A DNA stretch of 64,000 nucleotides. It comes from Tilletia caries (taxonomy: Eukaryota; Basidiomycota; Exobasidiomycetes; Tilletiales; Tilletiaceae). The DNA lies in the NCBI GenBank assembly GCA_032718865.1, contig JALUTQ010000005.1, positions 124,001 through 188,000 on the forward strand, read 5' to 3'. The notes under the pieces were generated by a model. It did not search any database. It was not told the origin of the DNA and saw only the letters and a list, made by a program, of their open reading frames with translations. The translations under genes were made by a program, and so were the position numbers. Shown piece by piece: positions 33,962 to 49,200 of this stretch (position 1 is the stretch's first letter; every line of letters begins with the position of its first letter).

Positions 33962-34583
33962 AGCCGCTGTCTTCCCTTTGTCACGCGCGCTTCCTTTTTC
34001 GGACCTGCTTCCTACGGTACTGGGAGGGCGTTGACTTCGGCACTCCTCTCTCTCACCACCCCACCCCATCCTCTGTTACATAGCCCCGCACAACTTCCCA
34101 ATCGTGTTCAGCTCAGTCCCCCAGCCCCATCTCCTACTCTATCTTTCGCATCCCAGCTTCTCTCTACCTACTCTGGCTGTCCTCTACATATTCCCCCCCC
34201 AAACTTGGTTCACCGTTTCATATCCCTCACCCTCATCAGCTTTCTTTCTTCCTTTTAATCGAATCGCGTATCTCTTCTCATGTTCGCGGGGCGCAGAGGG
34301 CTCCCCCGAGGCTCGAGGACCGAGGTCTGTGCAGGTGTAGTGGAGATGGTTCTGTGGTACGGACGGAGAACGGGTCGCGCCTCCCTCCTCCAACTTTTTG
34401 GATCGCCGCTTGGAATCAATCTCTCAGCGCTCAGCTCACGATCACAACCGCGCGACCCTCAGGGCTCAACTGCAGCCGTTCCCCCGTCGCCCCCTTCGTG
34501 AGAGCGAGCGCGCGCGCAGACGTACAGGAAAAGGGTCCCCGTCACCGAAGCGTAGGGAGACGTCCAGCTTCAGCGGCTGCACG
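33962..34583 (+). promoter_or_regulatory. 3' end of the ORM gene and upstream region of the Zn2Cys6 gene
   Basis: Pyrimidine-rich sequence of about 620 bases. No separate gene or RNA is supported. The open frame that continues into the next gene upstream of 34,584 starts with no conserved residues. Confidence 0.35.
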
Positions 34584-34604
34584 ATGTCCGACACTCTGCT
34601 CCAT

Positions 34605-34639
<35 letters not shown>

Positions 34640-36194
34640 TCATCAAGAGTCCTATACATATCCCAGCAGCAACGCAGAAGCAAGTACCTCCTCCAGCCAG
34701 AGCACAACCACAAGCACAGGAACAGGAACCAGGGCCGACCTCTTCCCCTTCCCATCCCTACTCTCCTCCCCCCCACCCCCCTCCACATCAACATCCTCCT
34801 CCTCCCCAAACTCCCCCGCCCCCGCCCCCGCCCTCTCCCACCCGCTCGCCCGCCCAACCCCAACATACGCCCACCACCCCAAACGCACCCAAGTCCGCCG
34901 CGCCTGCACCCTCTGTCAAAAAGCGTGCAAGAAATGCGACGAAGAGCGGCCCTGTGGACGCTGTGTGCGACTCGGCCTTGGAGATGGGGTATGTGTGGAT
35001 GGGGTGCGGAAGGCGAGGGCGAAAGGGGTGAAGAGGGGGAAGTATAAGAAGAAGAGGGGGGTGGAGGGGGGAGGGGGGAAGAGGAGGAGGGGTGGGAGTG
35101 GGAGTGGGGAGGAGGATGATGATGGGGAGGAGGAGGACGGGGATGGGGATGGGGAGAGGGAGGATGGAGGGATGGAGTACGAGGTCGACCTGATGAACGC
35201 CGCAAACGCCGCCGCGGCCGTAGCAGCCGCCGCCGCCATCTCCACGCACGACCCGCACCAAGACCATAACCAACCCGAGCAAGATCCGCATTTCTACCAC
35301 CACCACCACCACCATCAGCTTCAACAAGGGCAAGCGCACGACCATCATGCGCACAGCTCGGGACAGGCGGAGAATGCTGTGGGTGGGAATATGGGCTCGC
35401 TCGAGATGGAACTAGCAGCAGCCGTCTCAGCCGCAGCAGCCGTAGCAGCCGCCGCCGCCTCCGTCTCCACTTCCCATCACCCACATCCACATCCACATCC
35501 CCAGGATGGGCATCCCCCTGGGGTCGGGGTAGGGATAGGGACGAGTTTACTGGGTCTGCCGTCGGCCGGGATGGTTGATTTGTTTGGGGGGGCGGGGGGC
35601 TTGGAGGCTTTTGCTCATTTGCAGCATTTACAGCATCAGGGTCTTCAACAACATCAGGGTGTGGGGTACGGCGGTATGCCGTTCGGCGGGGGGACGGGTC
35701 TCCCACCTCAACCACCGCCTCCTTCGTCGCAAACTACCTCGACCTCGACCTCAACCTCAGGATTGGGATCAGGTCCAACACAAGACGGGCTCCAACAACA
35801 ACAACAACAACAGGACGACGTTCACTATCACCCCCAAGAAGGAGGCCACGAGGATGACGACGACGAAGATTCGCGCAAAGCGAACGAAGCTGCTGCGGCT
35901 GCTGTGGCTGCGGCCGCCGCTGCTGTGGAGGAGGCGGAGGCGGAAGCTGCTGCTGCTGCTGTGGAGGCGGAGGCTAGGGCGGGGGGGGGCGGGGGGGCGG
36001 GGGGGCGGGGGGGTGGGGGGGGGTGGAGCATGCGTTCTTGCCTTCCTAGCCTTGGGGAAGGAAGGGAAGTCAGCCCATCTTTGGTCCTTGGAGCGAAGGA
36101 GGGCCTTTATTTCACCTGCGTGCTTGCCTTGGACTGCGAAACCTTGGAGGCCCTTTTCGCGCGCCTTTGCTTGCTGTATTACGATGTTATATGA
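34584..36194 (+). CDS. Zn2Cys6 transcription factor with Gln, His and Ala runs
   Basis: A 536-residue single-exon product from MSDTLLHQQQ. The DNA-binding domain at about residues 110-140 has CTLCQKACKKCDEERPCGRC followed by a ninth-position Cys (spacing C-2-C-6-C-5-C-2-C-9-C), then a basic stretch KARAKGVKRGKYKKK typical of the linker. The remainder is low complexity: Q11 near the start, acidic GEEDDDGEEEDGDGD, His runs, Ala runs, poly-Gly. No Fungal_trans domain is seen. The last 60 residues, after a poly-Gly tract encoded by a very G-rich stretch (35,980-36,025), change in character, so the true C-terminus could differ through an unseen intron. The left end of the 9-kb transposon starts 190 bases downstream. 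Confidence 0.8.
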
Positions 36195-36371
36195 CTCGCT
36201 CTCTTTCTCTTCCCCATTTGGTCACCCATCTCTGTTTCATCCTGCATTTATTTAACTTTTGTACTGCGCATCAGCGCATCTGACTTGGCTTTATTTGGCC
36301 TTCGATCGTTGCCGTTGGTTCTGCTGCGGCCTAATAGTACATACCTGTAACGCCTGGCTCAGCATGGCTGC

Positions 36372-36384
36372 CATGCTCGACCCC
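36372..36384 (+). repeat. Left 13-bp direct repeat flanking the helicase/DUF6589 element
   Basis: CATGCTCGACCCC, identical to 45353-45365 about 9 kb away, each abutting an inverted TAGCCTCA end. This is the pattern of a target-site duplication, unusually long at 13 bp. Confidence 0.7.
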
Positions 36385-37195
36385 TAGCCTCATGCATAGT
36401 ATCAGGCGTGCTGTGCAGTGTGGAGAATTTCTCGGCCGAGATCCGAGAACGAAATGGAAGTGAAGCTTCCGATTTTGGTGCCTGAGCGGGCATTTTTTTG
36501 CTTAGTCTCGACACTCGAACGTCGGGCTTGGCCTTGGCCGCCGACGGTCTCGCGAAATTAGGGCCAAATTCTGAGTGTACCCTTCATCGAAATTCACAAA
36601 ACAGCCTCTTTTCGTCTATTATCGAAGTCGGTCGTTTTTAAGACGATTCTACTCAAAAAACTTGGAGGCTCGAGATCCTGGGCAGACGTACAATCCTTTC
36701 TGAGTGTTCGCGACAGGTTGTCAGAGTGGTTGGTGAGCTATGGTGGTGTCTGCCCGTTTTTGTTTCCTGCAATTCTCGATTTTACTATGTGATTTGACCA
36801 TTTCCTCGGTTGCCACTATGAACCTACCCTCCATCGGATTCAAGGTGAGGAAAAAAGTTCATGCACTAGAGCAGTGTTTTACCGTCCCGTCAAACGTTTC
36901 TCTAAGTGAGCTTAAGTTAAGCACGTGGCATCGCCTCTGACAGCTCGATTTTTCTGCCCTTCAGGAGTTGATCGCTGGACACCAGACAGATGATTCAAAT
37001 GACTTGAAAGTCACCAGGATGAGAGCAGGAGGATATATCTGTATTCTGCAGGTGATCTCAGTACGATTGGTTGCGATGCGGCTTCGCTATGGTGGTGCGA
37101 AGATGCGTTAGGAATGCGAGGCCGATGAAGGGTACAGCCAAAATCGGGCACTAATTTTGTGAGACCGCTTTCGCGCAAACGGTGTTTGACTGACT

Positions 37196-37320
37196 GCGAC
37201 GCGTAGTCTCATAGCATCAGACGTCTGTGAAGGACAGAGATTACATAATTTCCACGTGGTAAAAAATTAGCCGCCGCAGAGAGAGCGTCAGCCGTCCTTC
37301 AGGACGTCTGATTCCACGCA
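37196..37320. repeat. Inner inverted repeat, left copy
   Basis: GCGACGCGTAGTCTCATAG followed by ATCAGACGTC and, about 90 bases on, GGACGTCTGATTCCACG. The same order of words occurs in reverse complement at about 45,112-45,240. The helicase ATG follows 90 bases later and the DUF6589 ATG lies 70 bases inside the right copy, so both genes are probably driven from these repeats. Confidence 0.75.
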
Positions 37321-37411
37321 CTAATGAGTAATGACACATAGAGCAGTGCAACAGCAAATACACCTCACCATCAACATCAACCACATCTCCATCATTTCCA
37401 GATAAACCACA

Positions 37412-40059
37412 ATGCCAGCCATACGCTCGTACAGCTGGAAGGCTACGGATGCTATTGGCGCGCACTTGAGTGCGATCCGGACACCTTCGGGATCTACCCT
37501 CTCTGCCTCGCCTGTCACGACTGAGGATCACCTGCCATCTTCGTTGTTGGGTCGCTTGGGCAAACGAAAACGAGCCCGATCGGACAGGGAAGAAGAAGGG
37601 CCATGGTCGAAGCGTGCAAAGGTATGAGCCCGGAACTTGATTTGTTGACCGGACCATTGACTCTTCACAGGAGACAGCGAGCATTTTGAACATTCAGGGC
37701 TTTCATCGCTGATTTTTGTTCTTCATGTCTTTTCTCCTCCCTCTCACCGCTCCCTTCCTCCTTCTGCTACCCTCTTTCTTCATCTTCTTTCACAGCACTG
37801 CTTTCGGACTCTGTTTCTGCTTCAGAACAGCTCGCCTCCTCCCAGATACGATCCGAAGCAATACCAGCTGGTCGCGACGGACGGCGTACGGAACGGAAAG
37901 GATGTTATTGTCAAGGCACCTACGTCGACGGGCAAGGGAGAGATCATCGATTACGTCCAGAAGATCTTCCCTGACGGGGTCGTTATCGTGGCGGAGCCGC
38001 TCCAGTTACTCGTCTCGGATTTTGCTTTACGGTGAGGATCTGCTTCGGAAATTGTCGATGTATGCGTCAGTAAATGCGCTCATGCTCCTTTGGAAACACC
38101 CAGATTTGGCACTCGAGCGACGTACGTTGATGCAACGCACAAGAGCGACGCGCTCCTCGCCGAGATTCGTGATGGCAAATACAAGCTCGTGTTTGCGACG
38201 GCCGAGTCCTTGACCGAAGGAGCCTTCTTGAACAAGGTATTAATGCATGACCGGTTCCGTAGCCGCGCTGCTGCATTCATTTTCGACGAGGCCCATACGC
38301 TCGACCAATGGGGCCGCGACTTTCGTCCAAAGTTCCTGCAGCTTGGGGAGGTACGACGGCATCTGCAAGTTCCCGCAGTCGTAATGTCAGCGACGTTAAC
38401 GAAGCAAACGCAACGAGCATGTGAGACGACCCTCGAACTCACGGATCCACTCATCGTCGATGTCGGAACCAACCGACCGAACCTCTACCTGCGCATCCTG
38501 CCAATGCGATACTCTCCCAAGTCCTTCTTAGACATTCTCAGCCTGTTGCCCGAGCTGTGGGAGCGAGGTGGAGACATTGAGGAGCGGACTAAGAACTTCC
38601 CTGTCACCCTTATTTACGTCAACAACAAGGATCTTGCAACGAACATGTACACTCACATCAGCAAATGGAGCAAGCGAGCCGGCTTCGATGACGTGGTCGA
38701 CGTGTTTCATGCGGACATGTCGGAAGGGAACCGCACCGAGGTTCGCAAGCGTCTCGACCTTCGACAATGCCTCATAGCAATCTGCACGGACGCGTTTGGT
38801 ATGGGCGCGGATTGCCGACTGGTCTTGCGGGCGATGCAGGTTGGTTTGTTTGGCGGCGTATCTGCATTTTGGCAGCGAGTTGGACGTTGTGGAAGGGATT
38901 TTTCCGATGAGGCTGAATGTACCATGCTGGTGGAGCCATCGTACCTTGATGCCGATACCAAAAAGGCCCTCGCAGACAACGGTGACCTTCCTCCAATCCT
39001 GGATCAAGAAGAAGACGATATCGCAGATGTGCATGTGACCCTCGAGAGCGATGTTGAATCGATGCGGACGGGACAAAGCACGGTAGTCGCAAAAAAGATT
39101 GTGGACGACGAGCTGGTTGCCTTGGCCAGCCATGGCATTCGACGCGATGCTTGCGTTCGGCGATTGATTCTCCAGCACCTCGAGCAGCCATCTGCGGAAA
39201 GTCTTCCCGACCCCCTCAAGCTGTACTCGTCCAGCGGGCCGATTGAGAAGGACCGAAAGCTTCGTTGCTGTTCGACATGCGATCCGCTTCCGCTCTCCGA
39301 GATACCCGAGGAGCTGATACCGAGCAAGGAGATCATTCCGAGTCTGCCGGGCATCATGGCGATGCAAAAGGTTTTGCGCTCGCGACTGGAGGACTGGAGG
39401 TCGACGGAATGGGAGGCTTCTTGGAAGGCAAGTAGACGAGCAGGACGATTGGGAATCAATGCCTTCCTGAGTTTTCAGGACATCGACTCATTAGTCAACA
39501 ACCTCAAGACAATCGCACACGGCTTCAACGAGAATGACTCACGACTGGGTTCATTCGTTGGAATGCGGTTCAAGTCGGACGTGTTGCCGGGCCTCGAAGA
39601 CATTGTGAGGAGAGTCTTGGAAGAAGAGGAGACGAGACGGCAAGAGGCCAAAGACAAGGCGGGTGAGGAGCGGCGACTACAGCAAGAGGAAGCGAGGAAG
39701 AGGAGGGAGGCAAAAAGAGATGCTCGTTCAGCGCAAGAGTCTCTTCAGCGGGTTCAAGCTGCAGAAGCATCTGGTTCTCGGGTGAGTAAAGCGTCAAGCA
39801 AGTGCTGCCTGCTAGGGAAACAGAAGTTAGCAAGGAACGTGAGCTCATCCAGCCTGCATACCACCTTCAGACGTCAACCTGTTCCGTTTGCAAGGCTGTG
39901 AACCAGAACGACCCAACCGCCAATCTCGAGACAAGAGGGCACAGGCGCGATAGCAGGGTTTGTCCCTCGAAGCGTTGGCTAGAGAGTCGAAAGCCGACCG
40001 AAGGAGAGGAGTGGGCGCAGGAGTGGATGAAGAAGCTTTTTGAAATCTCGAAGAAGTGA
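37412..40059 (+). CDS. RecQ-like superfamily 2 DNA helicase of the transposon, C-terminal Cys/His cluster
   Basis: Probable exons 37412-37621, 37796-38031 (or from 37826), 38104-39781 and 39871-40059 give about 770 residues with all phases closing. Helicase motifs are in order: Walker A GKDVIVKAPTSTGKGE, QLLVSDFALR, the DEAH box in FIFDEAHTLDQWGRDFR, SATLT, then helicase C motifs HADMSEGNR, CTDAFGMGAD and QRVGRCGRD. A Glu/Arg-rich coiled stretch (ERRLQQEEARKRREAKRD) precedes the last exon, which encodes CSVC...RGHRRDSRVCP, a zinc-knuckle-like cluster that may bind DNA or RNA. The Walker A exon is only reached by splicing. The gene looks intact. Its place opposite the DUF6589 gene between inverted repeats suggests a role in transposition. 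Confidence 0.85.
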
Positions 40060-40870
40060 TGTTGTACTTTTGCTCGAGCGAAAATGGAAAATCGTTCGTC
40101 ATAGTTCGTCATCTTCCAGCTCCTGGACCCCGTCGAGGTTGTCCGACATTCCCACGTAGGAAAACATGCCTTCATTGTCACCCTCCATGTCCTCATCACC
40201 ACTTGCCTCGTCACTCAATTCGTCCTCACGCTCCTTCCCCATCGCTGCAGCCCGCCGAATACACCACCTAGCAAATGCTCCGCTGCGAGAAGCAGTGTCT
40301 TGGAGAGCGAGCATGCCGCTGGCGAACAGGTCGCAAGCAATATTCTTGAGCTGCCGAGCGGATTTGGTACTTTCACCGCTAGCCTGCAGTGTTGCGCGCT
40401 TGACTCGAACCGCCTCTCCTCTGATGAGCTCGAATGCGTTGCTCTGACGTCCTGTGCAATGCCATTCGAAGACAGAGCCGCGATCGAAGTCTCCTTGTAA
40501 CGCCTGAATGGTCGAGGCCCGCTTCTTGTCCGAATGTGTCTGATTCTGCGCTGCAATTCCGAGATCCTTCCAGAACCCGAACTTCAGATCGGCGAGGATC
40601 TGCAACAGAGAACCGATGAAACCCTTGTACTGGAGTGATTTGGGAGTTCCACCCACAGGCCAAGTGTGCTTGAGATCGAAGACGAAGTTTTCTTGAAGAA
40701 GGTCGGTGGGCATGAACGAGTCGGCGTGGCCCTTGGTGTTGACGAGCAAGCTTGCGAGCATGATCGCTCTTAGAGCCGGTGGAGATTCAAAGTGCAAAGT
40801 GACGAGGATCTCCAAGAGCTCAGACACGTAGTTGTGCTGACCGGTGGCTTGAAACCGAGGCACCAGTTGC

Positions 40871-41661
40871 AAAGGTTGTCCCCGGAGTAACGCGGAGGGC
40901 TCCGCCTCCGCACTTCCAAATTCCGCCGGAATTTTGACTTTTTGAGGCGAGCTCCGCCTCCGCAGACTAAGACAGAGCTGAAAAAAAACCAGCTCCGCGT
41001 TCCGACGGAATTATACAAAAATTGAAATCCCAGCTCCGCGCTCCGCGTTTTTCTGTGCGTTTTCATAATGCTCCTCCGTGCTCCGTGTATGCGGAGCTCG
41101 GAATTCCGCGGAATTCCGTCGGAGCGCAGTGGTGGTATAATTCGCTCTCAGAATGACTCTAACACAATCAGAGCTATACATTCACCATCCGACATTGTTG
41201 CGGTATTGACCGCAGTGCTATTCTGAAGCTCTCAACGGATGATGACGCCTGTTTTTATCCCCTGCGCGTGTCTCGACGATGCCTTTTTTCTCGGAATTCC
41301 GCACATTTCCGCGGAACTTGGACGGAATTTCGGCGTAGCGCACCCAAAAATAAGGTCACGTGACCCCTATTCTCGACTATCACGTGACCTCACAGCTCCG
41401 TCGGAATTCCGCGGAAATTCCGCCGGAATTCTCACACAATTTTTGACGACTCCGCGCTCCGTACCTTTGGCTAGTGGGCTCAGGATTGGGCTCCGCGCTC
41501 CGCGTAGATTCCGGCGGAGTCCTCCAGGCGGACTCCGTGCTTTTTTAAGATCAAAAATTTCTCAAAAGTGAGCTCCGCGCTCCGCCTCCGGCGGAGCCCT
41601 CCGTCGGAGGAGTACGGAGTCCGCAAAACCCCAGCTCCGCGTCAACTTCGGGAACAACCTT
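40871..41661. mobile_element. MITE inserted in the DUF6589 gene, 791 bp, 9-bp target duplication
   Basis: ACCAGTTGC is duplicated at 40862-40870 and 41662-41670. The ends are inverted: left AAAGGTTGTCCCCGGAGTAA, right the complement of AAGGTTGTTCCCGAAGTTGA. The interior is a dense array of GCTCCGC and GGAATTCCG words, many self-complementary. If the element and one duplicate are removed, the DUF6589 frame reads straight through (MKQLVPRFQATGQHNY). No usable AG acceptor lies at its 3' edge, so splicing it out precisely is unlikely. Confidence 0.85.
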
Positions 41662-42748
41662 ACCAGTTGCTTCATCGCTATGACCAGACGACCGGGATCA
41701 CCTGCGGAGATCCACGCTTGCAGCTCGATAAAAAGGCCAATGTCGACGAACATGCTCCTGCTGAATAGGTTGATGTCATCGCGCTCCGCTCCTTTCGCCT
41801 TTTGCTCCAGCAGATATTGCTCCGCATCAAGTCGCACAACCTCACGAATAGCCTCTTCGCTGATCTTGAGGAACGTTTCACGGTCGACAGCGTCCTTGAA
41901 TTCATTCTGCCGGTAGGCGGGACCTGGAACCCGTGTCCGCGCCCCGTCGTCTTGGTGGCGTGCTGAAGCACCCGCGTCCTGCGACAATGATCGCGCCGAT
42001 GATGAGGCAGAGGACGGATGAGCGGAAGCTGAGGTTGAAACGGTCGCTACGTGCTTTCGTAATGCCGCTGAGATGATCGAACAGCACGCGGCGCTGAACC
42101 AGAACTGCATGAAGCGGGCCGAGTCGTGGAAGTTGTGTGGCTGTGAGAGAAGATTACGCATACCGACGCGTTCTGCCAGCGTCCGGATGTCGAACCGAGT
42201 GGAGTGCTCCCGTGAGCCTCCATAGTTAATGAAAATGCAGCGAACGTAGGCATACTGAAGACGGAAAGGAGATAATGGATCAACTTTAACGAGCGAAAGC
42301 GGGAGAGGGAAAGATTCTAAGATGTCCAGACTCACCATCAAGTGCCATGGCGCTGCCCATGGCTGCTGCGTGGAGAAAATATCGAAGGATCTCTTCGATC
42401 GTTCGATGCGACGCATTTTCTGTGCAGACCTGATTTTTTCGACAGTGTAGCCATCCGCAACAACTGGCCAGATCCGAGTCTTCCAAACCTCGTCCGGCAG
42501 CTTGAGGTGCTGCAAGAAGAACTGGTCGAAAACCTCGATGTTTCCTTTGACTGATCCTTCGTCGACATCAAGGACAGGAAGAGGAATGATGTTGGTCTTT
42601 CGAGGTTTCAACGGCCATATCTGCGGAGACGCAGGTGGCGGATCGAACCCCAAATACGTGTGCTGTTGCAAAAATAGTTTCTGCGCGTGGCTGATCAATA
42701 TGCGGGCGAGATATTCTTCGTCTTTTTCGCCCATAAGGAGGTCTGCAG

Positions 42749-43522
42749 TAAGGAAGAGCACGGAGTGCCCCGGAATTTCCGTACTCCGGGGAGGACCTCC
42801 GCAGCAATTCCGGGGCCTCTCAGGGCATTCCGCATTCCGGTTAAATTACTCTTCTTTCGGGCGCAGAGCTCCGTATTCCGGGGAAAGATTCAGATTCATA
42901 CATCTGGAATTCCGGCTTCCGTCAAAATTTTTGGTTTTTGATCAATTTTTCGATTCCGCATTCCGCAGCTCCCGGAATGCGGAATTTCGCCGGATTCCTG
43001 GACTCTCCTCCGCAGTCACAAGATCATATGAAAACGAGTCGACCGTTTTTCTAAATCGGCTTTGTACTCGTCCATAGTCTACATTGAAGCTTTGCATTGG
43101 CCATTTGATGCCTCACTCGCATCAATTTGCTTTTCTTCAAGCCTCATGTGTCCTCTTGAGACCACAAGACTGGGTCTCCTCATATGTGAAACTCGCCGTA
43201 GAGTCTCATTTACAGATGAAACCCCGAATGAGACCCCACATCACGTGATCCCCGGAATCTCCCGGAATCCGGCAGAATTTCGGGAGAATGAGCTTGTCTG
43301 GCCACAGATTCCGCATTCCGCAAGAAAAGTCACGGCCAAAGCAAAATCCATTCCGCATTCCGGTTGAGCGGTATCAGGAAATTCCGGCTTCCTGCTTAAA
43401 AGGACTGAATTGACAAAAATGGAAAATTAGCATTCCGGGTTCCGGGTACCGCCGGAACTCTGCCCGGAGTGCCCCGGAATTCCTGCAAACCCATTCCGGG
43501 GTCTACTCCGTGCTCTTCCTTA
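42749..43522. mobile_element. Second MITE in the DUF6589 gene, 774 bp, 8-bp target duplication
   Basis: GTCTGCAG is duplicated at 42741-42748 and 43523-43530. The ends are perfect inverted repeats TAAGGAAGAGCACGGAGT. The 8-bp duplication suggests hAT-type transposition. The interior is again full of CCGGAATTCCGG and GCATTCCGG words, similar in style to the other MITE although the ends differ. Removing it joins PKDLHPAD to LLMGEKDEEYL in frame. Confidence 0.85.
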
Positions 43523-45111
43523 GTCTGCAGGATGTAAGTCTTTGGGTAAAGGCTTCTGCCGTAACTCGTCTCGTTGCCGCCGCAGTTCCGGCCAAGGATT
43601 CCGGGTAGGGGAGCTCGCCACTAGCTCCTCGATCATGCTGGTGACTGCGGTCGTGGGCTTGGGCATGTTCGCACCGAGCGCATCGGTGAACACCTTCGGA
43701 TCACAGGTTGGTGCTGTGGACCGTCCTTTAATTGCACGGATGTATCGACTTCGTACAGAACTCCGTGCGTTGCCGCTGTCATTTGGTTGGAGACCCCGAA
43801 CCCCTTGTTGCGATGCTTCGTCTGCCAGTTGATGTTATCGTATCCGAAGCAGTAGACCTTGGTCTTGTCGAGTAAAGCTGAGCGGGCACGATGCTGAGCC
43901 GATCGAGAAAGCTCCCGGATGGTGCGGAGGAGCGTAAGGTACGAGACTGACATCCCCATCCTGCTGAGCACCTCGACCACACGGCGTCCCGTCCGGGATG
44001 CGAAGAGAAAGAGTCCCAATGACCTTTGAAATCGGGAGATCGTCACATTCCGAGCCAACAGTAGCATCATCGTCGCAGCCATAGCGATCTACGTGGACGC
44101 AAGCGATTGGAGCATCATTAGAGCTTATTGAGCAGAGGATAGAGCATTCATACTTACTCACAACCATGGGTGATCTCTTCCCGCGCTTGGATACCGGTGC
44201 CTGTTTGCTGCTCGGCTCGCCCTCCTCGTCCTCCGCAGACGGCTGTTGATGGCCAATCTCATCGATGTCTTGCCAGATGTCGTCCAGCTCGTGTTCTTCG
44301 AGATCGCGCTCCTCGTCGGTCCGATGCTGGCCCGTGCTTCCAGATTGTCGAGCTTCAGGAGCCGGGGATGGAAGACGCGACCCCGGTTCGGACCTGTCAA
44401 GACGAGAGGTGAGGGGGAGCGTCGAAACGACAGATGCGACGGCCGAGGGACTTTGATCGACCGTGACAGCAGATTGCTCTTCACCGACACCGGCTATTGC
44501 TGTGATCACAGCAAACGTGATCGGTAGTTGAGTCCGAATGGTGTTGGCAGCGTCTCCGAAGCGATAGGTCTGGATGTCGTCGCCACGATTCATGCTTGAT
44601 GGCCGGCGAAGCTCAGGAAGCTTCGAAGCGCCTTTACCCTCGGCCCGCAACTCGTCCACTACGATCGCAAGAGCCGTTCTGCGCCCGCCCTTTGATTGCT
44701 TGACGAAGTTCCTTGCTGCTGTGGTTGAAAAGAAAGGTCGAACATGTCGATGGATCTGCTTTTGGACCTTGTCGTCCAGGTTGACGGATGCAGGGTCGAA
44801 CAGCGTGCGCAGCAGATTGCTGTAGCTGACACCGAGCTCGTCCAGGAAGGTGAAGAATGATTCGATGTCCGACTCTTGAAGGCGACGACGCTTGGACGGT
44901 TCCTTAGGCTGCGGTTGAGCTTGAGCTGGAACTGGCTCTTCCAAAGGCTCCAAAGAGGAAAGACTGGAAAGAGAAGAGAGCATGGACACGTCGTCGGACT
45001 CGGAAGACATGTAGCTGGTGGATAAATTGAGTGTCTTGTTCATGGTGCTTATGAGTGGATGGTATGGAGGTATGGTGTTGGGTCGTGAATTGCAATGTGT
45101 CGATTTCCTTA

Positions 45112-45240
45112 CGTCGTGGAATCAGACGTCCTACGGACGGTTTGCCGGCGCCCGCTGGCGTCTAATTTTGCAAACATTGCTGCATAGCAACAACACCACA
45201 GTCCACATGGACGTCTGATTCTATGAGACTATGCGACGCG
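45112..45240. repeat. Inner inverted repeat, right copy
   Basis: Reverse-complement partner of 37196-37320, with about 125 bases of imperfect match that is strongest at both of its ends. Within the copy, ACGTCTGATT and AATCAGACGT are themselves inverted. Confidence 0.75.
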
Positions 45241-45352
45241 GTCTCTGTTGAGACTGACTATTTTTTGCTCTCACTTCCATTTCGATTTCGGCCGAAAGCC
45301 TAATTGGCCCGCTCTCTGGGCAGCCTGAGTTTCTACCTGAGATCTGAGGCTA

Positions 45353-45365
45353 CATGCTCGACCCC
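45353..45365 (+). repeat. Right 13-bp direct repeat flanking the helicase/DUF6589 element
   Basis: Second copy of CATGCTCGACCCC, directly after the right element end TGAGGCTA. It runs into a C-rich tract, so the last few C matches may be fortuitous and the true duplication may be 9-10 bp. Confidence 0.7.
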
Positions 45366-45559
45366 CCCACCCCCGCGGCGCTCGATTTCATGCTCGACCT
45401 GCTCGACCCGCGCTCGATTCATTGGATATGTACCTTCTAGCGTCCGGCGTCCCGCAGCAGTCAGCGACGCAGCAAGCGCAGCAATAATGTGCATGGATTC
45501 ATTATTCATTGATTATTGATCCTGCCTGCCTGCTGCCTGCGCACTTTGGGGCCATCCGC

Positions 45560-45628
45560 CTTGAGGCTTGAGGCTTGAGGCTTGAGGCTTGAGGCTTGAG
45601 GCTTGAGGCTTGAGGCTTGAGGCTTGAG
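45560..45628 (+). repeat. Minisatellite (CTTGAGG) x 9.9
   Basis: Perfect tandem array of the 7-mer CTTGAGG over 69 bases, just outside the right end of the 9-kb element. It is not the fungal telomere unit TTAGGG. The array is open on the minus strand as SLKPQAS repeats, but no gene context supports coding. Confidence 0.95.
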
Positions 45629-46222
45629 CGTGGAAGTCACAGGAAGCCCGAAGCAGTGTAGGCTGGCTGGAGTGAGGAGTCTGGACGCTGGACAGTAGTG
45701 CGTGGGCCGTGGACGGAGATAGCAGAAAGTGATCCATGCGGCACTATTATGCAGGTTGAAGTCAGTGAGTATATAGTATAGCGTAGACTATTATAGTCAC
45801 GCCTTCTGACTAGACTGACTACTGACTCACTTTCCACCGATATACTACTGAGAACTCTGAACTGAGTGACCGCAAGGCGTGGCTCTGGTCAATCGATTTT
45901 CTGGGTGCCAACTGCCAGTACTCTTGAGTCTGCGCACTGCTGAGTGCTGAGTCTGACCGCGCCAGGCTTGCTTCTTTTTCTTCTCATATCCTCGCTCCTC
46001 GCTTTCGTCCCCCTCGCTCTCGTTCCCACGCTCGCCCCCCTTCGCTGCAAGGAACACAGGCCACCTCTGATCATCGTCTCTCTCGCGTGCTTCTGCTTCT
46101 GCGCCTCCTCAAATCAAACTCGAAGCCCGGAAAGAATCGCAAGGACGCACAGATCTCATCTCATCAGTGAGTGGCCGCTTCGACACGTCCTCGCCGGTGC
46201 AAACTTTCCGACCTTGGGAAGC
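45629..46222 (+). promoter_or_regulatory. Upstream region of the large Zn2Cys6 gene
   Basis: About 600 bases with no supported gene. A C/T-rich leader runs up to the ATG at 46223. The frame is open upstream to 45944, but those residues are hydrophobic and Leu-rich and not like the protein that follows. Confidence 0.35.
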
Positions 46223-49200
46223 ATGCACACCGCCCCGTCCTCCTTCCTGCCCTCCTCACACATCCCTCGCAACGGCACCGCCCTCCCGCCGCCGCCCGTC
46301 CCTACCGTGTACTCTCGCCCACAACCACAGCCATCATCATCGCACCCAGCCACCGAATCAACGTCCATGAGCAAAAAGACGGGAGCAAAAGCAGCAACGG
46401 CGACTGTGGCAGCGGCAGCGGCTACGACCACCGCCCTTTCCAACAACAACCAAGCACAGCAACAGTCACAATCAGCAATGGACGAAGATATCGACGGCGA
46501 CGGTGACGCCGACGACCCTAACAAGCGCAGACGCGTCGCCAGAGCCTGCGATAGCTGTCGCAAGAAGAAGGTCCGATGTGACGGTATCGACCCGCCCCAT
46601 CGCGAGGCCTGCACCAACTGCTCCACCTACGGACATGAGTGCAAGTTCCTCAATGCTGCCAAGCGACGAGCTCCACCGAGGAGGTACGTTTCTCTTTCCC
46701 CCTCTTATCTCTCCCTTTTTCTCTACTCACCTCCCACTTCCAATCACGATCGATTCGGTACAGCTACGTCGACGCTCTCGAAGCTCGCATGGCCAGGATG
46801 GAGGCTCTCGTCTCCTGGTTGGCCCCCGGCGTCGACTTCACCGATAAGGTCGGCCCCCCCGTCGTCCTTCCCGACATCGGCGATAACGCAGATGACCCAA
46901 ATGCTGCAGCAGTAGTAGCCAACACCACCGTCTCTCCTCCGACCGCGAACAGCGGCTTCGTCCCACCAACAGCCAGCATCGAAGCGATCCACAAATCCAA
47001 TTTTGAATCCAATTTCGGTCATTCCATGCCCGCCGATCTCGACCAGGGCGAGGAAGAGCCGGAGAATATTGGGATCTTGCTCCAGCACAAAATCGACCGC
47101 TTTGAATACGAATTCCACTCTTCCACTGGCGATTCTGCCATGGTTGATGGAATTCATCGTTCCAACAGCTCACCCGACAGCGAGACCAATGGCACTTCTG
47201 ATGGCTCGGCAGGCTCGGCCGAAGGGACAACATCAGGAGGAGGAGGAGGAGGAGGCAGCAACGGTAGCAGACCGCCGCTGAGTGCATCCGATTCGGCACC
47301 CAAGCTCACCCACCGCAACGACATCTCCATCCTCTCCACGGACAAACTCGCAGAAGGCCACGAACACTCGAACCAGTTGGACCAGCCGGACACGGCCGTC
47401 TTCTTCGGGCACTCCTCCAACTTCATGCTCTACCCGCAACTCGAAAAACTCTCCCTCGGCATGGCGCAGAATAACAACCCGCACCGGATGCACTTCATGC
47501 AGCATTCCAGATGCATCCCGATCGCGGACATCTATGCCGAGACTGTGGGTCCGCCGTTGGAGAGTATTGACTTGCACTGGCCGGAGCCGGACTTGCAGGA
47601 CGCTCTTGTCGACGCTTACTTCGAGTCTGCTCATCCGAATATCCCCATCGTGAACGAGGCGATCTTCCGTGACGAGTTGGCGAACCAGCCGGAATTGAGG
47701 AAGGACCGGCACTTCCTCAATCTCTGTCTTGGCATCTTCTCCATCGCCAGTCGGTTCGTGGATGATGAGCGCTTGATGACCCATCCGGCCCAGAATGTGC
47801 ATACCCGTTGGCAGTTGGGTATACAGTGGTTGGAGCCCCGGAAGCAGTTGGGCTTTAGGATGTTCCCTACCAACTTGTCTCTCTGCCAGCTCCAGGGCTT
47901 GATCCTCTCCTCCTTCTTCCTCCAAGACACCCCCGTCGGCGGCACGATGGGCTGGGCCCTCCTCGGCGTAGCCATCCGCCTAATGCAGGCCCACGGCGTC
48001 CACCGCCGCGCCGTGAACCGGGCCCGCCAACTTCCCGTACACATCGACGAGCAGTGGAAGCGCTGTTTCTGGGTGTGTTACAACCTCGATGTGGAGCTGA
48101 GCTCGAACATGGGCCGGCCGATCGGGGTGCATGAGGATGATTTCGATTTGGAGTTCCCGTTGGAGGTGGATGATGATGTGCTGTGGGAGGCGGGGAAGGC
48201 TATGCTTGCGGCGCGGAGTCAGGCGCAGGCGCAGCAGCAGGGTAGCGCTGGTACGGGTCCAAGTCCCAGTCCGACGTCCACCTCCGGACCGTCGGCCTCG
48301 ACCTCCGAACCGAACACGAACACGACCTCGACCTCCTCGCCCAGCACGAGCACGTTCCCGCGCGCAAGCGTGAGCGTGGTGGACTCGGTCGCGATGCAAG
48401 GCAACCGCCCCGTGAAATTCATGACCTCCTTCAACGCGATGTCGAAGTTGAACATGATCATGGCCCGCATCCTACGAACGATCTACATGCTCCCCAAAGC
48501 CCGCATCGCGCGCGGCTACGTCGGCTCTCAAGCCCCGCAATTCGTCGTAGCCGAGATCGACTCCGCCCTGAACGAATGGATCAACTCGATCCCGCGCCGG
48601 ATCCGGTTCGACCCGCACGAGGCGGACGATGGGCTGCTGTTGCAGTCGAGTTATGTCGCGATGCGGTATTACAATTCGCAGATTTTGACGCATCGGCCGT
48701 TCATTTCGGGGACACGGCAGGAGAATCCTAATTTTGCGAGTTTGGCGATTTGTACGAATGCGGCGAGGTCGTGTAGTCACATCTTGGACTCGTTGAGGAA
48801 GAGGGGCTTGTTGGGTGAGTTCTCTCTCCGTTTTTTTTCCCTTTCCATTGACTCCCTGTTTGCGTGTGCTGATATATGCTCCCCCATTCTTTCTTTTCTC
48901 TCGTTGAAAGTCAACGCGAGCATGGCTACTGTCGGACACGCCTTTATCGCGGGCTGTGTGCTGCTTATGGTCGTCTGGTCGGCCCGGAAGAGTGGGGCGA
49001 GACTGTCGAGCTCGACGCTTTCGGACGTGGCCAAGTGCGTGGAGGCACTCCGAGCGGCGGAGAAGAGGTGAGTTTTTTGTTGAAACGGCATTTAGAACTG
49101 GGGTATGTCCTACTTTCCGTCTCTCACGGTGGCTAACAAAAAAAAAACCTTCTTCCCGCGCCCCGCGCCCCCCCCCCCCCCTTTTTTATCAGCACATATC

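What the first reader, a model, noticed from the sequence alone, without database searches (positions are those of the whole stretch)
36385..45352. A 9-kb inverted-repeat element built on a RecQ-like helicase plus DUF6589: possible undescribed transposon class
The sequence shows a 13-bp direct repeat (CATGCTCGACCCC) on both sides, inverted TAGCCTCA ends with further inverted blocks inside, and two convergent genes filling the interior. One gene is a RecQ-like helicase with a C-terminal Cys/His cluster and the other is a DUF6589 protein. No DDE transposase, Rep/Pif1 helitron protein or tyrosine recombinase is present. DUF6589 is a widespread basidiomycete family without a known function, and I infer that it is the transposase (RNase H-like, with YDN and DGYT as candidate catalytic blocks) and the helicase its partner.
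Basis: partly seen in the sequence, partly recalled or inferred. Interest (0 to 1): 0.9.

Follow-up and report, generated by a model that had tools for sequence, protein, structure and literature searches.

The report
Nested helicase-carrying transposons in a fungus
This is a real jumping-DNA element made of a probable transposase (so far filed only as "DUF6589, unknown function") and a RecQ-type helicase, but the supposed 9-kb unit is three such elements nested in one another, and the type matches a transposon lineage called AcademH that was named in 2020.

Summary
The repeats and the two convergent genes are real, but the boundaries are not those of one element. Three related elements are nested: A (36385-45352, the TAGCCTCA ends and 13-bp repeat), B (36503-45260, TSD TTTTTTGCT) and C (37204-45231, TSD TGCGACGCG). 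C holds both genes. Two 0.8-kb MITEs break its DUF6589 gene.

The genes form a mobile pair. The genome has 48 DUF6589 loci; 37 have a RecQ-like match within 6 kb, 36 of those convergent. Of 21 two-gene loci examined, 11 have inverted ends and an exact 9-bp TSD, as have 5 of 6 short copies (the sixth is A, 13 bp). Five B-family ends elsewhere carry C's target site once: empty sites. Two AlphaFold models of DUF6589 proteins resemble Hermes and RAG1 best, at middling Z.

So DUF6589 is most likely a DDD/E transposase with a RecQ-like partner. A helicase plus 9-10 bp TSDs is how AcademH is described, so I call this a new AcademH-like family, not a new class. Homology to Repbase Academ could not be tested. 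No held paper mentions DUF6589.

The parts
36372..36384 (+). 13-bp direct repeat CATGCTCGACCCC, left of element A
45353..45365 (+). 13-bp direct repeat CATGCTCGACCCC, right of element A
36385..45352 (.). Element A, outermost, non-autonomous (about 0.2 kb without what is inserted in it); TIR TAGCCTCA...TGAGGCTA; end sequence shared with the two-gene family of L024/L025
36494..36502 (+). TSD TTTTTTGCT, left of element B
45261..45269 (+). TSD TTTTTTGCT, right of element B
36503..45260 (.). Element B, non-autonomous (about 721 bp without C), inserted in A; TIR TAGTCTCGACA...TGTTGAGACTGACTA; copies not interrupted at this site elsewhere (L039-L041); two-gene relatives L031 and L032
37195..37203 (+). 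TSD TGCGACGCG, left of element C
45232..45240 (+). TSD TGCGACGCG, right of element C
37204..45231 (.). Element C, 8028 bp, the two-gene element inserted in B; a second copy (about 98% identical in the aligned blocks) lies at C5:81928-90320
37204..37225 (+). Left TIR of C (19 of the 20 terminal bases match the right TIR)
45210..45231 (-). Right TIR of C
37412..39901 (+). RecQ-like helicase gene: first exon from ATG 37412, Walker A exon (KAPTSTGKGE), long frame 38090-39901 with DEAH at 38285. Exon borders and the true 3' end were judged by eye only.
40099..45043 (-). DUF6589 gene (probable DDD/E transposase), broken by two MITEs and containing introns; YDN block 43828-43842, DEG block 42552-42572, ADGYT block 42444-42461, WH block 42336-42350, PTDLLQEN block 40687-40710
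40871..41662 (.). MITE 1 inside the DUF6589 gene, TAAGGTTGT-type ends (first base differs), 8-bp TSD CCAGTTGC read by eye
   Evidence: family ends seen in L020
42749..43522 (.). MITE 2 inside the DUF6589 gene, TAAGGAAGAGCACGG ends, 8-bp TSD GTCTGCAG

Best explanation
Element C (37204-45231) is a two-gene TIR transposon of the AcademH type. The DUF6589 protein is most likely its RNase H-like DDD/E transposase: it would bind the TIRs (TAGTCTCATAG...), cut at the terminal TA bases and join the ends to target DNA with a 9-bp stagger, giving the 9-bp TSD. The convergent RecQ-like helicase is its partner and probably unwinds the ends or the insertion intermediate. C inserted into a non-autonomous element B, which had itself inserted into A; both belong to sister families of the same kind. 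Later two MITEs broke C's DUF6589 gene. Shown here: boundaries, TSDs, empty sites, gene pairing, repeated mobilisation. Supported by predicted structure only: the transposase fold. Inferred: catalysis, the helicase's role, cut-and-paste rather than another route.
Confidence: 0.75

Rival explanations
1. A superfamily of its own: DUF6589 elements have a RecQ-like helicase and 9-bp TSDs but their transposase is not an Academ relative; the likeness to AcademH is convergent.
For: DUF6589 is in no paper of the held library, has no Pfam relative at E up to 1 that is a transposase, and its models lean to Hermes and RAG1. Transposase homology to Academ was not tested.
Against: Helicase plus 9-10 bp TSD is the published description of AcademH, which is reported from fungi; a second unrelated lineage with both would be a coincidence.
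Confidence: 0.18
2. KolobokH: a Kolobok transposon with a RecQ helicase, found only in fungi.
For: RecQ helicase and fungal host fit; a rhodophyte Kolobok even has its RecQ helicase on the complementary strand (PMC9587614, passages).
Against: Kolobok makes TTAA 4-bp TSDs; here TSDs are 9 bp and none is TTAA. [quoted passage not shown] here it is a separate convergent gene.
Confidence: 0.02
3. One 9-kb element with a 13-bp TSD; the inner repeats are sub-terminal binding sites.
For: The 13-bp repeat and the TAGCCTCA ends are exact.
Against: Copy 2 of C ends exactly at the inner TIR with its own TSD GTTCGAAAG; B occurs without C, with its own TSDs; A-type ends occur on other elements.
Confidence: 0.02
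4. Fixed host genes, helicase and DUF6589, that happen to lie between repeats.
For: Both proteins are encoded as long frames.
Against: 48 dispersed DUF6589 loci, TIRs, TSDs and empty sites.
Confidence: 0.01

Closest known systems
AcademH DNA transposons (Kojima 2020; seen only through passages of PMC10045372 and PMC10799480)
   Same: Encodes a helicase; 9-bp TSD (AcademH 9 or 10); reported from Basidiomycota; low copy per family (2-4 near-identical copies in each group among the 21 loci compared)
   Different: Transposase relationship not tested; 48 DUF6589 loci over many families in one genome; no passage I saw links AcademH to DUF6589
KolobokH (PMC9587614, passages)
   Same: RecQ helicase, fungi
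   Different: TTAA 4-bp TSD; [quoted passage not shown]
hAT (Hermes) and RAG1/Transib transposases
   Same: Predicted overall fold with insertion domain; best structural matches
Helitrons
   Same: Carry a helicase
   Different: Rolling-circle elements with HUH nuclease and without TIR/TSD of this kind (recall); here TIR and TSD are clear

Membership tests
AcademH | Encodes a helicase | tested here: met
   DEAD and Helicase_C, RecQ-like by phmmer for copy 2, helicase match beside 37 of 48 DUF6589 loci
AcademH | TSD of 9 or 10 bp | tested here: met
   9 bp in 16 of the 17 element copies for which both ends and a flanking repeat were found; element A has 13 bp; L024 and L026 have end motifs on both sides but no flanking repeat
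AcademH | Encodes a DDD/E transposase with RNase H-like fold | tested here: inconclusive
AcademH | Transposase sequence homologous to Academ of Repbase | not testable with these tools
   Repbase not available; defining paper not held
AcademH | Range includes Basidiomycota | tested here: met
KolobokH | TTAA 4-bp TSD | tested here: not met
   9-bp TSDs, none TTAA
[quoted passage not shown]
   Separate gene on the opposite strand, 36 of 37 convergent
Helitron | No TIR, no TSD (recalled) | tested here: not met
   TIR and 9-bp TSD present

The most novel reading that the evidence does not exclude
DUF6589 elements are a transposase superfamily separate from Academ: a Hermes/RAG-like fold that works with a dedicated RecQ-type helicase and a 9-bp stagger, expanded into many families in one fungal lineage, so that a whole Pfam family of unknown function is an unrecognised transposase lineage.
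Probability: 0.18. Interest if true: 0.72.

Novelty: new member of a known kind. Interest (0 to 1): 0.42.

Why it matters
It gives a testable function to Pfam DUF6589 (PF20231): probable transposase of helicase-carrying DNA transposons. Genome annotations that count these proteins and their RecQ neighbours as host genes would then be counting transposons. It also supplies several families with mapped ends, TSDs and empty sites, from which one can ask why a DNA transposon needs its own RecQ helicase and how it makes a 9-bp stagger.

Tried and rejected
Rejected: the single 9-kb element (inner ends are ends of separate elements); KolobokH (TSD); Helitron (TIR, TSD); fixed host genes (48 loci).

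Led nowhere: homologue searches reached few relatives (8, 1 and 10 proteins; each scored only the roughly 8000 candidates sharing most words), so I have no view of DUF6589 outside Tilletia plus one unnamed protein (P0008, sources lgn and ena). Foldseek against the PDB found no match at E 0.001 and ranked TolC-type proteins first. A PDB sequence search with the DUF6589 profile gave one chance hit at E 2.3. No Rfam match at gathering scores in 36000-46000. Literature: 'DUF6589' in 0 papers; with 'PF20231' and matching inside words, 4 papers of unrelated subject by title, none holding DUF6589; 'AcademH' in 7 papers; further listings. None of the passages I read gives an Academ transposase sequence or domain name. 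The 13-bp length of A's repeat stays unexplained: the A-family copy at C28 has 9 bp, and A's left end carries an extra TGCA. L024 and L026 have A-type ends but no TSD.

What I saw of papers: passages only of PMC10045372, PMC10799480, PMC9587614, PMC8290104, PMC12210899, PMC12730594, PMC7473861 and PMC10294476; PMC9674265 had no occurrence of the terms; Kojima 2020 (AcademH) nothing: it is cited through the others and from recall.
Full report
1. The 13-bp repeat, the TAGCCTCA ends and the two convergent genes are in the sequence at the stated places. The helicase frame matches DEAD and Helicase_C; the corresponding frame of the second copy matches WRN, BLM and RecQ in the PDB (E 3.6e-21). The other gene matches Pfam DUF6589 in two frames.

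2. The window is part of a 38.1-Mb assembly in 40 contigs (G000). The named relatives of its DUF6589 proteins are from Tilletia: 47-53% identity for the window family, and 95% to a T. controversa protein for another family. I take the host to be a Tilletia-like smut or bunt fungus; this is inference.

3. Ends. A second copy of the two genes, about 98% identical in the aligned blocks, lies at C5:81928-90320. Its homology to the window stops not at TAGCCTCA but at the inner repeat TAGTCTCATAG...CTATGAGACTA, and there it is flanked by its own 9-bp TSD GTTCGAAAG. In the window the same inner ends, 37204 and 45231, are flanked by TGCGACGCG. So the gene-carrying element, C, is 8028 bp.

4. Nesting. 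C lies in element B (36503-45260, TSD TTTTTTGCT). B occurs elsewhere without C: L039, L040 and L041 have TAGTCTCGACA...TGTTGAGACTA with 9-bp TSDs TATGTAGCG, TACGATCCG and CACTCCAGT (L041 has another insertion in its middle); the two-gene relative L032 has ACCCCAGGC. The target of C, TTGACTGCGACGCGGTCTCTGTTGAGACT, occurs whole at five places, with a single TGCGACGCG, and at none for the reversed control pattern: three are B copies (L039-L041) and two (L037, L038) are the right ends of the two-gene loci L032 and L031. These are paralogous empty sites. B lies in A, whose ends recur on L024, L025 and L043. The A-family copy at C28 has TSD GGTCTTCTG, 9 bp; A in the window has 13 bp. Two MITEs with 8-bp TSDs lie inside C's DUF6589 gene; copy 2 lacks them.

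5. The pair is a module. PF20231 gives 75 matches, which cluster into 48 loci; a search with the window helicase gives 47 matches in 43 loci (clustered within 4 kb; the tool calls such counts lower bounds). 37 of 48 DUF6589 loci have a helicase match within 6 kb; 36 of these 37 are convergent, none divergent, and the one tandem case points at a helicase that already belongs to a neighbouring pair. 11 DUF6589 loci have no such match and 7 helicase loci have no DUF6589 match; the helicase search used one query, so distant helicases may be missed. I fetched 20 of the 48 loci, all chosen for having both genes. Protein identities of the two genes tend to rise and fall together over the 190 pairs of these loci (Spearman 0.41; zeros from fragmentary frames included, pairs not independent), for example 66/66, 97/98, 99/98, 56/48.

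6. TSD count. Two-gene loci examined: 21 (the window's C and L017-L036). TIRs and an exact 9-bp TSD: 11 (window C, copy 2 [L017+L042], L019, L020, L021, L022, L028, L029, L030, L032, L035). Without: 10 (L018, L023, L024, L025, L026, L027, L031, L033, L034, L036). Short copies: 9 bp in 5 (window B, L039, L040, L041, L043/L044), 13 bp in one (window A). The script found 9 of the 20 fetched loci; 50 randomisations of the same 20 loci gave 1 hit of 9 bp or more and 4 of 8 bp or more.

8. Known kind. AcademH is described as a lineage of Academ transposons with a helicase and 9 or 10 bp TSDs, in contrast to AcademX with a nuclease and 3 or 4 bp (PMC10045372, passages), and as low-copy in Basidiomycota, Ascomycota and Mucoromycota (PMC10799480, passages). 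The elements here meet the helicase, TSD and host features. KolobokH fails on TSD and gene order (PMC9587614, passages). So the class is very probably not new. I found no mention of DUF6589 in the held library, hence none of its link to AcademH; Repbase may contain it.

9. Mechanism. Shown: insertion with 9-bp duplication, repeated mobilisation of a two-gene unit and of short derivatives with the same ends, genes kept together. Supported by models: transposase fold. Inferred: TIR cleavage and strand transfer by DUF6589, and unwinding of ends or of the insertion intermediate by the helicase. The window copy of C has a broken DUF6589 gene and could move only with protein from elsewhere; I describe this and mend nothing.

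10. Scores. The element is real and well mapped, the DUF6589 assignment is useful, the class is probably known: interest 0.42.

Noticed in passing
40871-41662 and 42749-43522: Two MITEs of about 0.8 kb with TAAGG-type ends, 8-bp TSDs and GC-rich TCCGCGGAATTCC-like inner repeats; 43 of the 47 matches listed are copies of these two families (40 of 338 candidates scored, so a lower bound). MITEs with TAAGG ends and 8-bp TSDs also sit in the stretches of L020, L023, L033 and L036.
   Followed up: partly
C5:88326-90277 (L017, L042): Copy 2 of element C carries an insertion of about 1.95 kb near its left end; its nature was not examined.
   Followed up: no
45944-49071: Zn(2)-Cys(6) and Fungal_trans frames (probably one transcription factor gene) start about 0.6 kb right of element A; another frame with a weak, sub-threshold Zn_clus match lies left at 34398-36194.
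   Followed up: partly
45560-45635: Tandem array of the heptamer CTTGAGG.
   Followed up: no
36385-36404: A's left end has TGCA inserted relative to family copies, and its flanking repeat is 13 rather than 9 bp (9 + 4); whether the two are linked is open.
   Followed up: partly
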